A stretch of 64,000 nucleotides of DNA. Source: Muricea muricata (lineage: Eukaryota > Cnidaria > Anthozoa > Malacalcyonacea > Plexauridae). The notes below the pieces were generated by a model. The model made no database searches, was not told the DNA's origin, and worked only from the letters and a program-made list of their open reading frames with translations. Each line of letters opens with the position of its first letter. The first letter of the stretch is position 1. The stretch is taken from positions 4,464,001 through 4,528,000 of the forward strand of contig OY979722.1 of NCBI GenBank assembly GCA_963855995.1, written 5' to 3'. Below, in pieces: positions 12,190 to 48,566 of the stretch. The position numbers were made by a program, and so were the translations under genes.

Positions 12190-15100
12190 TTAAGCCTGAT
12201 CTTGAGAGGACCCATCGAAGCTCTTTGAAACACCAACGTTTGCGCTGCCATCATCAGTACTTTGAATAGGCAAATCAGGATGCGTTTTTACCCTGGAAAA
12301 AGATCACTCGGAAATTATACTTAATGAGCAATTTGCTAGTTCGGCTCGAAAAATGGATTTCTATTTGACAACTAGTGCCAGTACTTTTCTGTGTTTTTAG
12401 ATCATCTAGAAAGTTAACAATTGAGTTTTTACCATCTTGAATATTGTGCATATGGCTATATAAGCATTGCTGCCGCTTTGCCGCATAAATGAAAGCATAT
12501 GGAAGTGGTCGAACGTGATTTCATCATAATGATTGTAAATAACAGGAAAGTCTTCAGAATAAAAAAGAAAACAAAGAAGACCCTAGGAGAATAAAATCTG
12601 AATAAATTCATTTCGCCCCAAAATCCATTGACATATTCTTCTTGCAATAAAGAAAACGCTCATTGCTATATTTTTTATCGTGGCGCGTTTACCCTGGCTG
12701 GACACGGTGCATCGCGATTCGAGATGGTGTCGCTATTGATACATAAAAATTTAATTTAGAGCTCCTCATCGTGAACTTACCGTCCGCCGTTCTTCCGTTC
12801 GAATTCAGGGGTTTGGTGGTTTTGTCGTACTGATTCGTTACAAGAGGTTCCGGTTGTAGTCTCCGGGATTGGAAAAAGGACAATGTTTTCATCTTTTAAT
12901 CTGGCCGACTGGTTGTTCTTAATAAGGCAAAATACCATGACACAGATGACAATAAAGACCACAAATATTCCGACTATTCCCAACCCAATCTTTAAATAGG
13001 GCACCTCTGCCACCAAAGGATGTACATGCGTCGAACGCGTCGATACATGGCGAGCAGAGCCTGCAGAAAAACCGCTACCACGAGAGGATGTGCCCTTTGC
13101 AGTAGGTGTTGTGCCAGATATGAACACTAAAATTAGATTGTTAATTAAGGACGGTTAGAAATGTAAGATTCAATAAACCCACACTGCTGCAGCTCAATTC
13201 CATTAGTTACTTCGCTAGTTACAAGTTATTTCGACATGCTAACACGTGACCAGTCTCATTAAATATTTGTAAAAAAATCGCGGGACATGCTTGTGGAGGA
13301 GTCTAAACTCCACAAGCATATAACGCTATTTTTTTTAAACTTAAATTTAAAAAGCTGCCTTCCATTCCGCAAACGAGAACAATGGTATGCAACCATGTGA
13401 ATAACCCAAAGTTGGGAATTGGGTGGCAACGCAAAATTAGCAAAAATTTGTCATGATAGACCAAGGAACAGACGTGAATTTATGAATGCTTATTGCATGC
13501 TCTGCTGGCTCGATTAGAAAATTGGCAATTACAACCACATAACTTAATCAACAACTTAACTTACCTGTGGAGGGTATTGAAGGTTTTCTGGAGGTTGACA
13601 AACTAACAGTTGAAGTAGCAGTGGTTATTGGCTTTATTACTGCAGAATAGAAACAAGAAGTTCGGATAAGGCTCCACATACATTTTGATCACTATAGCAC
13701 GACCAGACATGCAACATCTGCACTGAAGCAAAAACTGGCATGAATAAATTATATATATATATATATACTATACTAGATTGTACTATATATATAAATATAT
13801 ATATATATATATATATATATATATTAATATGATTACAATTAAAACTCTAAAATGATTTCAACAGGCATAAAAAGGATGAAACTTTATTAAAATCCAAACG
13901 TTTCGCCAGTAACGGCTTCTTCAGTGGAAAAGTCTAATATACATAAAAACTGTCCTCTATTTATGTGTACATACCATATCTAATTAAAATAGATAACTAT
14001 ATGCAGATATTTCTGCCAATACAACCGTTCATGATATTGTCTGAATGTTTCTGTATTTCTAAGGCTTCAATGATTTTGCGTTCGCTGTGGGATTTGATGT
14101 TACTATGCAGTATTTTCCAACTAATGGGACATTCTTCAAAAGGATTGTCGGAGTGACTCTTTAAGTGCACAAAGACTGTCTGTTTTTTCATTCTAAGGTG
14201 TTCTTTTATCCTTGATCCTACAGTTCGTCCAGTTTCCCCTATATACGTTATATTACAGTTTGAACACACTATTTGATAAACTACATGTTTTGTAAAGCAG
14301 CAATTTGCCTTCAACGTCAGCTTACACGTTTCACAATCATCTGGGCAATTACGTTTTTCTCTTGAGGGCGCAAATACCTTCGATGACGGCCGACCATTCA
14401 TGAAATGGGTTTTAATGTTCGATATTCCCGAATTGCGTATAACAGACAATGCTCGTCGTTTTAATTGTTCATTCACATAAGGTATCTTTAGGTAGATGTT
14501 TTCCTGCTCATCATTGTTTGGGATTGTACTCAATGTCCGTCTGATAACCGCTTGAATAAATCTTTTGGGATAACCATTCTGTTTGAAGATTGTGGTGATT
14601 TTACGTAATGACCGCGTTCTCGATTGTGCATCCGTCGAACATGCAACCGCTCTTCTAATTTCTCCAACTAATAAGGCCCGCTTGGAAGAATTTGGACCGT
14701 GACTATCCCAAGGCATTATAGCTTGACTATGAAACGGTTTGATGTAAAGTTCAGTACTGAATTTGTTTGTACGCTCATCAAACGAAACTAATGTGTCCAG
14801 GAATGGTAGCTGATTATCTAAATTTGGCTTTTCTATAGTAAATTTTATAGCATCATTCAAGCCGTTTGAAATCTCCAATAATTTGTCTGCATCCGTATCC
14901 TGGGATACCAATGCAGCAAATACATCATCAATAAATCGTTTTAATAAAATAGTTCCGTAAGATTTTTCCAATAGTAGCTCATCAAGTTCATTCATATATA
15001 TGATTGCAAGGGTTGGAGCTAAATTGTTCCCCATTGCTAGACCTTTCTTCTGACTTCGAAGCACTCCTTCGCCTTTGTATTACAAGCGACACTATTCTAA

Positions 15101-45795: not shown

Positions 45796-48566
45796 CCTCC
45801 AATTCTTAAACTAAGAGCAGTACCCTCGAAACGAGGTCGTTTCCCACCATTTTCCTCGCCGTCGGATGGTTCATGTGACAGTATTTGTGCATCATTTGTA
45901 TCATACAAACACCCTTCTCCACCACATTGCTCAGGTGAATGGCCACTTTCAACGTAATGATACCGATGTTCCATAACTTCTGCTGAACGATCATGCTGCA
46001 AAGGCTCTTCTGCTTGAGTTGGCTGTTGGCGCTCTTCATCGCCATTTGGTTGAGACGAAGGTCGTTCTCCACCATCTGCAGGCTGTATAGGTTGTTCACT
46101 ATCACCTCGCAGCTCGATATCATTCGACTGCAGAAGACTTTCTGCAACATTTTCGGGAAATTCCTGCAGAGGAATTTCTGGGTGTGCACCTTGACCTTGA
46201 TAACGTATGGACTTCTCACGAATTTTGCGAACCAACAGAAACACCAGTGCAGCTACCACTAGAGTCACCAACACCAAAAGAACCGACAGCAGGACATAAA
46301 CCGAGAATAGATCGTTCCCACCACTGCCGTGTTTTTGATTTTGGGTTGATCTACCTCGATATACAGTTGAACTAGACACGTTTGGAAGAGTTCTGGAATG
46401 CTTTATATAAATTGACGTTGGCGTTGGTCTCAATTCTGATGAAGAGTCAACCACTTTTGTTGGCTCTGGTTTCACTAAAAAATAAAATACGAAGGATTTG
46501 TATATTAGAGGTCTCCCATATCGACATTACAGACTTTAACTAGATATTTTTGTGACTTAATGATTTATTCGACGTCACTATCGGAGTTAGTAACGTCGAT
46601 TAAGCATAAATAGTGAACAGAACTGAAGCCAAACGACATAAAAATATGTGTCTGTATTTAAAAACAATCAAGGACAGAAGTGATGTCATGTCATGCTTAG
46701 CAGCACTGCATGTAGCATTAAAAGCCAAAACATTATCGGTAAACATACATATTTTAAAATACTGATAAAATTCAAGCATATGCAGGTGGCAGACAGCAGG
46801 TGGCTTCGACTTTGCTTAGCAACCTGTATTTAAACGAATTTGCTTAGTTTCTACAGGCCTAAAATGCTGAGCTGACTTTTAATAAACCAAATATTAAACT
46901 TACGTAAGAAATACGTTTGGGTGTTGGGTAAAATATTTAATGTGTATACAGTTATAGGCAGGGCAGACAGGATACAATCGTTGATTGCGAAGAAAAACAA
47001 TGATCCAAAGGCAAAACAGGTGACGTCAATTCCAATCTTAAAAGAAGCTGCTATATATTTGCATGTATATGTATTTTGGGAGCTAATCACTCGATCTTTA
47101 AATTAAAAGTTTCTGGTAAGTATACGAATGTGGTGAAGGTGGACTAAATATGACAATACATGTGGCAGATGTAGTTGAAACTGTCTAAACAGTTTGATGA
47201 CCTGAACTATCCCTCCCCTGCATGGAGCTGTTCGAATAATCACTTACAACAAGTTAATTTAATTTGTGGCAACAAATAAAAGTCAAGTTCAGTTTGTCAG
47301 TAACAGTACAAAAGTTTGTGTACGTAGGACTTAACATTTCTACGGAAAACGCATACACTATTCGTGATATTGCATCATGGCTATTGATTTCCCTGAAGCT
47401 TTTTTAAATTAGACAACTTTTACTCATTGCATTTTTATTCTTGATCAATAATTAAGCCCCGTACAGACAAGTTTTCTTTGACAAGTTTCTTGGCGAGTTC
47501 ACTTACGCGTTTGTAGGACGAACAAGTTTTCCTTCACAATTTGCCCTGACACTTGACAGGCTTTATTTGTTCTTGTGTACCCGAAAATTGACAATAATAT
47601 TTTTTCTTGACAACTCTTGGCGAGGCCGCATGAATTAAGTACGTAAGCAAAAATTCCCGTGTCAAGTGTTTCTTGTTGCACGTACACACGAGCAAGTTTC
47701 CTTGTCGAAAAGCTGGTACGACTAGCTTTTAAACCAGTCTCTTTGTCAAGGAAAAATTTTCAATTTTTTCGCGTACACACAAGCAAATAAAACATGTCAA
47801 GGGAAACTTGTCAAGGAAAACTTGCTCGTCTGTACTGGGCTTTATTGATGTTTTGGTGGTGGCTATAGAAATTAACCCACGCAATTAATCTTTCAACCGT
47901 ATATAGTACAAAGTGCGATTTTTAAAGACGTAACATATGAATACATTTCATCATCTTGATGTGCCATACTCGATACATTTTAATAACGAAATATTTTTAA
48001 AGGTACTTAAACTTAAATCAACATGCAAGAGCAACATAATTATAATAAATTAAGAACATTAAAGAAATTTCAAATCTGTTCAAGAAGTTTGTAATATGGT
48101 GTTTATATACACACATATATAATATGTCTACTATCTCACAGAAACATCTGATACAACAGAATATTTTCTTGTCACATTGTGTAAATGCTTGTACCACTCT
48201 AGTTTAGCGATCTACAACATGTTACGGGTGTCACTGAATTACGGGTGTCAACAACAGACACATGCATATATAGTCATAGATTACTAAGCCACTGGGAAAA
48301 GTGAAATACATTATAACATATCATAACTTACCACGACAAGACTCCTCGCATGGCTGTTTGTCAACTTCTGGCTGGTCATCACAGGTTGTCCAATGGCGTG
48401 GACATGAAGCACACGATCCAACTCCTGGTAACACCGTAATACTCCAATATTGTAGACCTTTAATACAATCTTCGGGTTTTGTTTGACTTTGTTTTGATTG
48501 TTTTGGTAACACGAGAAAATAAAAAAATATCGATAGAAAAATATTGACCATTTGACGAACCAACAT
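45796..48566 (-). CDS. TNFR-like single-CRD receptor, gene 4 (last exon unresolved)
   Basis: Exon 1 is 48332-48566: ATG 48566, M-L-V-R-Q, then a strong hydrophobic signal core (I-F-L-S-I-F-F-Y-F-L-V-L), then the cysteine domain, C-x16-C-x2-C-x6-C-x10-C-x3-C. Exon 2 is 45796-46474, joined in phase 1: stalk V-K-P-E-P-T-K, Ser/Thr-rich, then a membrane helix of about 25 residues (V-L-L-S-V-L-L-V-L-V onward) and a basic stop-transfer R-K-I-R-E-K. The tail is long (about 145 codons), acidic and Gln/Pro-rich. It has P-L-Q-E near its start, fitting the (P/S/A/T)-x-(Q/E)-E TRAF2 pattern, and P-I-Q-P-A-D, fitting P-x-Q-x-x-D. The exon ends L-S-L-R-I-G-G at a GTACGT donor in phase 2, the same place as in genes 1 and 2, so a final short exon is expected. 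Receptor/TRAF function is inferred. Confidence 0.7.
46904..47047 (-). CDS. Possible phase-1/phase-1 cassette exon in gene 4
   Basis: A 144-nt open stretch lies between a CAG acceptor and a strong GTAAGT donor. Both boundaries are phase 1, so it could be spliced between the two known exons of gene 4 without shifting the frame. It would add 48 residues, mainly hydrophobic (C-F-A-F-G-S-L-F-F-F-A-I). The acceptor lacks a good pyrimidine tract and no paralogue has it. It may be chance. Confidence 0.25.
47455..47841. mobile_element. 387-bp TTA-flanked MITE (PIF/Harbinger-like)
   Basis: Ends AGCCCCGTACAGACAAG and CTTGCTCGTCTGTACTGGGCT. TTA is present outside both ends (47452-47454, 47842-47844). 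The interior carries many CTTGACA/TGTCAAG motifs in both orientations. TTA duplications are typical of PIF/Harbinger. It lies in the intron of receptor gene 4. Confidence 0.7.

What the first reader, a model, noticed from the sequence alone, without database searches (positions are those of the whole stretch)
12190..48566. Tandem array of four single-CRD TNFR-like receptors
Four minus-strand genes share one plan: signal peptide (not visible in gene 3), one six-cysteine domain with C-x2-C and terminal C-x3-C spacing, a phase-1 intron, a stalk opening with K-P, one helix, and a tail with TRAF-like motifs. Known single-CRD members (BCMA, Fn14) are few and not arrayed like this. Diverged extracellular domains and stalks on a fixed exon plan suggest repeated duplication with ligand- or pathogen-driven change.
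Basis: partly seen in the sequence, partly recalled or inferred. Interest (0 to 1): 0.8.

Follow-up and report, generated by a model that had tools for sequence, protein, structure and literature searches.

The report
Coral array of mini TNF-receptor-like genes
A soft-coral-type genome carries a cluster of small membrane receptors that look like minimal TNF (immune and cell-death signal) receptors; one of the four first noticed is probably a broken gene, and the cluster is larger than the window.

Summary
Largely real, with corrections. A six-frame scan finds exactly four six-cysteine exons, all minus strand. Genes 1, 2 and 4 have the plan described. Gene 3 is most likely a pseudogene: no signal peptide, a frameshift, and hAT-type insertions beside and inside it. 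The array is larger: nine such exons on this contig, seven found on another. A mitochondrial contig with COX1 and MutS marks an octocoral. No TNFR model or PDB chain matches the domain. TACI CRD1 ranks first of 21 comparison domains for the larger profiles, weakly, but fourth for the window four, where a decoy leads. Tails of 3 of 4 carry PxQx[S/T], kept in the second copy. The genome has seven TNF-ligand matches, six in tandem, and 40 TRAF-domain matches. Best reading: lineage-specific single-CRD TNFR-like receptors acting through TRAFs. Pathogen-driven change of the domain is not supported (dN/dS 0.2-0.4 there). The fold is untested; structure prediction was off.

The parts
18061..18295 (-). 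Gene 1 exon 1: signal peptide + six-cysteine domain (CRD 18062-18214)
   Evidence: copy on C1:79335701-79335938
12781..13126 (-). Gene 1 exon 2: stalk (no K-P), one transmembrane helix, first part of tail
12190..12292 (-). Gene 1 exon 3: end of tail with PIQST motif and stop
25168..25375 (-). Gene 2 exon 1: signal peptide + CRD (25172-25300)
   Evidence: C1 copy, CRD 96% identical
23499..23944 (-). Gene 2 exon 2: K-P stalk, helix, tail ending PPIQATSSHIRIGG
39538..39690 (-). Gene 3 CRD exon (CRD 39542-39673; 5' end uncertain) without signal peptide; probable pseudogene
38347..38485 (-). Gene 3 stalk exon, first piece, frameshifted relative to the C1 copy
34855..35239 (-). Gene 3 stalk exon, second piece: helix and tail with PPVQAS
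35240..38346 (.). hAT-like insertion in gene 3 stalk exon (ends CAGGGGCGGATC, target duplication ATCGCCTA); absent from the C1 copy
39758..42518 (+). hAT transposon (ends CAGTGCTTCCAC, target duplication ATGACATC, transposase ORF 40012-42045) 85 bp upstream of gene 3 CRD; absent from the C1 copy
48332..48566 (-). Gene 4 exon 1: signal peptide + CRD (48336-48467)
   Evidence: no near-identical copy found in the genome
45797..46474 (-). Gene 4 exon 2: K-P stalk, helix, long acidic tail; 3' end uncertain (possible donor near LRIGG, or read-through to 45549)

Best explanation
This is part of a lineage-specific, tandemly duplicated family of minimal type I receptors in an octocoral. Each working member puts one TNFR-like cysteine domain outside the cell on a threonine/proline-rich stalk, crosses the membrane once, and has a short tail, in genes 1-3 with a PxQx[S/T] (CD40/LMP1-type, recalled) TRAF-docking motif. 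Likely mechanism: a trimeric TNF-family ligand, plausibly from the six-member ligand array on contig C3, gathers three receptors; their tails recruit TRAFs and start NF-kB/JNK signalling, with no death domain. Shown here: anatomy, exon plan, frame conservation for genes 1 and 2, second copy, motif conservation, presence of ligand and TRAF genes. Inferred: fold, ligand binding, TRAF binding, signalling. Gene 3 in the window is most likely dead; the working genes of the window are 1, 2 and 4.
For: Four CRD exons on one plan; nine on C7 and seven found on C1. Frame and splice sites kept between C7 and C1 copies of genes 1 and 2; pooled dN 0.042, dS 0.069. Outer members are C-x12-C-x2-C-x4-C-x10-C-x3-C with C-x4-Y-Y, against C-x12-C-x2-C-x3-C-x8-C-x3-C with C-x4-Y-F in BCMA and C-x12-C-x2-C-x3-C-x7-C-x3-C with C-x4-Y-W in TACI CRD1 (letters recalled). 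hhalign: TACI CRD1 first of 21 (7 TNFR, 14 decoys) for the nine-member and outer profiles; AUC TNFR over decoy 0.79, 0.86 and, for the window four, 0.84; 5 of 300 and 7 of 300 column-shuffled controls reach the real score against a hand-aligned BCMA/TACI profile. PxQx[ST] in tails of genes 1, 2, 3 (0.0004 by shuffling if independent), kept in the C1 copies. Seven TNF-ligand matches, six in one 80-kb array; 40 TRAF MATH matches, partial ones included.
Against: No TNFR, BCMA, TACI or Fn14 model among Pfam hits of nine domains; no TNFR chain in five PDB sequence or profile searches. The TACI match is weak (probability 34% and 22%); for the window four alone a granulin decoy is first and TACI CRD1 fourth, and 8 of 200 controls reach the real score. 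TACI CRD2, Grnd and, for the nine-member profile, TNFR1 CRD1 and BCMA score below some decoys. Cys3-Cys4 spacing in the window genes is 6-8, longer than the 3 of BCMA/TACI. The outer members have a seventh cysteine four residues before the first of the six. Gene 4 lacks the strict motif, and two of three outer tails have none. The three motifs sit in related genes, so are not independent. No transcripts, no structure.
Confidence: 0.66

Rival explanations
1. A cnidarian-specific cysteine-rich membrane protein family, not homologous to TNFRs, whose resemblance is convergent cysteine spacing; the tails bind something else, or TRAFs by independent gain of the motif.
For: No Pfam or PDB match of TNFR kind; for the window four alone a granulin decoy tops the list; seven cysteines in the outer members; the five TNFR_c6 matches in the genome lie elsewhere.
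Against: TACI CRD1 ranks first for the two larger profiles; same first-module spacing and aromatic position as TACI/BCMA in the outer members; PxQx[ST] kept in diverged tails; BCMA itself finds TACI only at E 0.14 and 0.17 by phmmer, so missing sequence matches mean little for this kind of domain.
Confidence: 0.27
2. Receptors diversified under pathogen or ligand conflict.
For: Copy-number difference between C7 and C1 (gene 4 absent from the C1 block); overall dN/dS 0.61; stalk of gene 2 (2.05, 7 changes), helix plus tail of gene 1 (1.50, 15 changes) and tail of gene 3 (1.05, 9 changes) at or above 1.
Against: The CRD region, where such pressure should act, is the most constrained part: 0.42, 0.41, 0.21, the last on six changes.
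Confidence: 0.15
3. Secreted or membrane decoys rather than signalling receptors, at least for the two outer 'B' exons that lack a stalk/helix exon of their own before the next CRD exon.
For: Five outer CRD exons but only three stalk/helix exons found on C7; two outer tails without motif.
Against: B exons keep a phase-1 GT donor, so could splice to the shared downstream exon; window genes 1, 2, 4 have helix and tail.
Confidence: 0.12

Closest known systems
TACI (TNFRSF13B) and BCMA (TNFRSF17)
   Same: Ligand-binding CRD with C-x12-C-x2-C start (outer members), terminal C-x3-C, aromatic pair after Cys1; type I protein with TRAF-docking tail (last point recalled for TACI/BCMA)
   Different: No significant sequence match; longer Cys3-Cys4 loop; outer members have a seventh cysteine; BCMA lacks a signal peptide (recalled) while these have one; many copies in tandem; no BAFF/APRIL-type ligand shown
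Fn14 (TNFRSF12A)
   Same: Single six-cysteine domain; second or third in the hhalign ranking; short tail with a TRAF site (recalled)
   Different: Terminal C-x2-C rather than C-x3-C; no significant match
Drosophila Grindelwald
   Same: Invertebrate single-CRD TNFR with Traf2-binding tail and a second module C-x3-C ... C-x3-C (PMC8024323, passages)
   Different: Eight cysteines in an X2-C2 arrangement; hhalign score no better than decoys
TNFR_c6 (PF00020) receptors of the same genome
   Same: Same superfamily if the reading is right; five matches elsewhere in the genome
   Different: Those five exceed the PF00020 cut-off, and one (L001) shows more than one cysteine repeat in its open frame; the array members do not match the model

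Membership tests
TNF receptor superfamily | At least one extracellular six-cysteine CRD forming three disulfides | tested here: inconclusive
   Six cysteines in TNFR-compatible order in 9 of 9 C7 members, plus a seventh in the five outer ones; disulfides and fold not testable, structure prediction off
TNF receptor superfamily | Match to the TNFR_c6 model PF00020 | tested here: not met
   0 of 9 domains match it at E up to 10 with HMMER's filters on; genome search with PF00020 returned five places, none in the array. Single-CRD relatives escape such searches too (BCMA vs TACI E 0.14)
TNF receptor superfamily | Type I membrane protein: signal peptide, one helix, cytoplasmic tail | tested here: met
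   Genes 1, 2, 4 by inspection; hydropathy was run only for outer exons and the C1 copies of genes 2 and 3. Not met by gene 3
TNF receptor superfamily | Cytoplasmic TRAF-binding motif or death domain | tested here: inconclusive
   Motif PxQx[ST] present in genes 1, 2, 3 and kept on C1; gene 4 only PIQPAD/PLQE forms, common by chance in its tail; no death domain in the Pfam scan of genes 1, 2, 4. Binding not tested; motif definition recalled
TNF receptor superfamily | Binds a TNF-family ligand | not testable with these tools
   Ligand genes exist in the genome
BCMA / TACI / Fn14 families | Match to the Pfam model of the family | tested here: not met
   No such hit for nine domains in Pfam-A; hhalign to TACI CRD1 34% probability at best

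The most novel reading that the evidence does not exclude
A paired ligand/receptor system in an octocoral: a six-member TNF-ligand array on one contig and two arrays of single-CRD receptors on others expanded together, and in the outer receptor array two first exons, each with its own signal peptide and CRD, share one stalk-helix-tail exon, so the ligand-binding domain is chosen by promoter choice while the signalling half stays the same.
Probability: 0.15. Interest if true: 0.75.

Novelty: new variant of a known kind. Interest (0 to 1): 0.5.

Why it matters
A 2016 perspective lists as open what TNFRs without death domains do in invertebrates and what the ligands of invertebrate TNFRs are (PMC4979521, parts 1 and 2 of 4 read). 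A compact cluster of single-domain receptors together with a compact cluster of candidate ligands and many TRAFs in one cnidarian makes both questions testable with a small binding matrix. It also suggests that a receptor family of this kind can be missed by the standard TNFR model.

Tried and rejected
Pfam for the window CRDs, joined genes 1, 2, 4 and outer CRDs: only hits below the curated cut-offs and unrelated (FhuF_C, Orf78, TMEM154, HRG and others), rejected. PDB sequence searches: no TNFR hit; the few weak hits (laccase, an uncharacterised protein, WIPI3) were rejected. hhalign on the four window domains: 8 of 200 controls reach the real score, so not used as proof. A separate signal-peptide exon for gene 3 was sought upstream, with strict donor and hydropathy rules, in window 42519-46000 and C1 79312000-79316641: 0 candidates in the window, two start codons (three donor choices) on C1, none shared, so rejected. 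Alleles versus segmental duplication for C7 and C1: not decided. Inner and outer sets stand in opposite order on the two contigs, and the flank DNA search that could have settled it did not complete. Literature: nine searches. The pair octocoral and TNFR gives nine papers, eight listed; by titles and starts of abstracts none of the eight is about such an array. One, on red coral, reports a TNFR1 transcript raised 5.1-fold at 24 C (PMC10424431, passages). PMC10236652, on tandem duplication in corals, has no occurrence of TNFR in its main text.
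Full report
What is there. A six-frame regular-expression scan of the window finds exactly four six-cysteine exons, all on the minus strand. Reading the sequence around them gives a common plan: exon 1 with start codon, hydrophobic leader and CRD (gene 3 has no leader); a GT donor in phase 1 within one codon of the last cysteine; a phase-1 acceptor; then stalk, one hydrophobic helix and tail. Gene 1 is 18061-18295, 12781-13126, 12190-12292 (227 residues); gene 2 is 25168-25375 and 23499-23944 (217 residues); gene 4 is 48332-48566 and 45797-46474 with an uncertain 3' end. 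The stalk begins with K-P in genes 2, 3 and 4 but not in gene 1.

Gene 3 is probably broken. Its CRD exon has no hydrophobic leader, and a search for a leader exon upstream found no candidate in the window. Two insertions lie beside and in it: 39758-42518, with terminal inverted repeats, an 8-bp target duplication and a 677-residue ORF with the hAT dimerisation domain (PF05699, E 9.3e-9), and 35240-38346, with hAT-like ends and an 8-bp target duplication, inside the stalk exon. Before the second insertion the stalk reading frame is shifted relative to the copy on contig C1, which has an uninterrupted stalk, helix and tail but also no leader. Against a plain pseudogene: its CRD shows dN/dS 0.21 between the copies, on only six changes.

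The array is larger than the window. The window is C7:4464001-4528000 of a 453-Mb, 74-contig assembly. In 264 kb of C7 there are nine such exons, the other five at 4581007-4596539 on the same strand; a profile of the nine, run back over the same DNA, adds no tenth (next best E 0.17). Protein searches of the genome, which score only the best candidates, add seven on C1: counterparts of genes 3 and 2, of gene 1 and four outer members. Gene 4 has no near-identical partner, and the stretch that holds it is missing from the otherwise collinear C1 block. That block (79310036-79340000) matches window 53.4 kb to 11.5 kb at 69-96% identity per segment, mostly 85-95%, and lacks both gene 3 insertions and the repeat insertion in the gene 1 intron. 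Inner and outer members stand in opposite order on the two contigs. Whether C7 and C1 are alleles or duplicates is open.

The exon models of genes 1 and 2 hold up. Across C7 and C1 the splice sites of genes 1-3 are kept (one GT donor is GC on C1), and coding indels in genes 1 and 2 are multiples of three. Nei-Gojobori estimates: gene 1 dN/dS 0.68, gene 2 0.56, gene 3 CRD 0.21, gene 3 tail 1.05, pooled 0.61 (dN 0.042, dS 0.069; 26 synonymous and 54 nonsynonymous differences). The signal-peptide-plus-CRD parts give 0.42 and 0.41. Gene 2 stalk (2.05) and gene 1 helix plus tail (1.50) exceed 1 on 7 and 15 differences, too few to claim selection. This speaks against strong diversifying pressure on the ligand-binding domain, at least on this time scale.

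Is it a TNFR domain? Sequence tools do not say so: no TNFR-related Pfam model for nine domains and no TNFR chain from the PDB in five searches. That is weak evidence, since BCMA finds TACI only at E 0.14 and 0.17 in the same database. By anatomy the outer members are C-x12-C-x2-C-x4-C-x10-C-x3-C with Y-Y after the first cysteine, against C-x12-C-x2-C-x3-C-x8-C-x3-C with Y-F in BCMA and C-x12-C-x2-C-x3-C-x7-C-x3-C with Y-W in TACI CRD1 (recalled); but the outer members also have a seventh cysteine just before. Profile comparison puts TACI CRD1 first of 21 domains for the nine-member and five-member profiles (probability 34% and 22%), with TNFR domains above decoys on the whole (AUC 0.79 and 0.86; 0.84 for the window four). 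For the window four a granulin decoy is first, Fn14 second, TACI CRD1 fourth. Against a BCMA/TACI profile 5 of 300 and 7 of 300 shuffled controls reach the real score, 8 of 200 for the window four against BCMA/TACI/Fn14.

Signalling side. The tails of genes 1, 2 and 3 contain PIQST, PIQAT and PVQAS. Gene 4 has PLQE and PIQPAD, forms that 69% of shuffled gene 4 tails also show; the outer A gene has PCQES and the two outer C genes none. The chance of three of four by composition is 0.0004 if the tails were independent, which as paralogues they are not. The motifs stay intact on C1 (PVQST, PIQAT, PVQAS) while neighbouring residues change. The genome has seven TNF-domain matches, six of them in tandem at C3:52218878-52299227 and differing from each other in alignment, and 40 TRAF MATH matches, some partial. 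Ligand, receptor candidates and adaptor are therefore all present.

Organism. Contig C74 (19,292 bp) carries COX1, read by genetic code 4 without stops, and a MutS_V match. A mitochondrial mutS gene is a hallmark of octocorals (recalled), so this is taken as an octocoral genome.

Outer genes. Five CRD exons but only three stalk/helix exons were found there. Each B exon has its own leader and donor but no stalk exon was found before the next CRD exon, which suggests alternative first exons sharing one signalling half, or decoys. This rests on layout alone.

Conclusion. The finding is real in outline. The most likely identity is a lineage-specific family of single-CRD TNFR-like receptors that recruit TRAFs, in an octocoral with a tandem ligand array. 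It is not filed as BCMA, TACI or Fn14, whose models it fails. Calling it TNFR superfamily is an inference pending a structure.

Noticed in passing
G000:C3:52218878-52299227 (loci L045-L050): Six TNF-ligand matches in tandem on the plus strand within 80 kb; a seventh stands alone at C3:37983846.
   Followed up: partly
window 13820-16353: Perfect 1236-nt inverted repeat of a Penelope-like fragment (reverse transcriptase and GIY-YIG) inside the intron of gene 1, not matched in the C1 copy.
   Followed up: partly
G000:C7:4578396-4596539: Outer array: five CRD exons but three stalk/helix exons found, suggesting alternative first exons; these CRDs have a seventh cysteine.
   Followed up: partly
window 1427-1870 and 4613-5008, plus strand: Two related ORFs sharing DPYD...GRYEFFLY and a hydrophobic segment, no Pfam family above cut-off.
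   Followed up: no
G000:C2, C9, C10 and others: 40 TRAF MATH-domain matches, many close together on a few contigs.
   Followed up: no
G000:C1:38414782-38416095: COX1-like stretch with one stop codon in a 124-Mb contig, probably a mitochondrial insertion in the nucleus.
   Followed up: no
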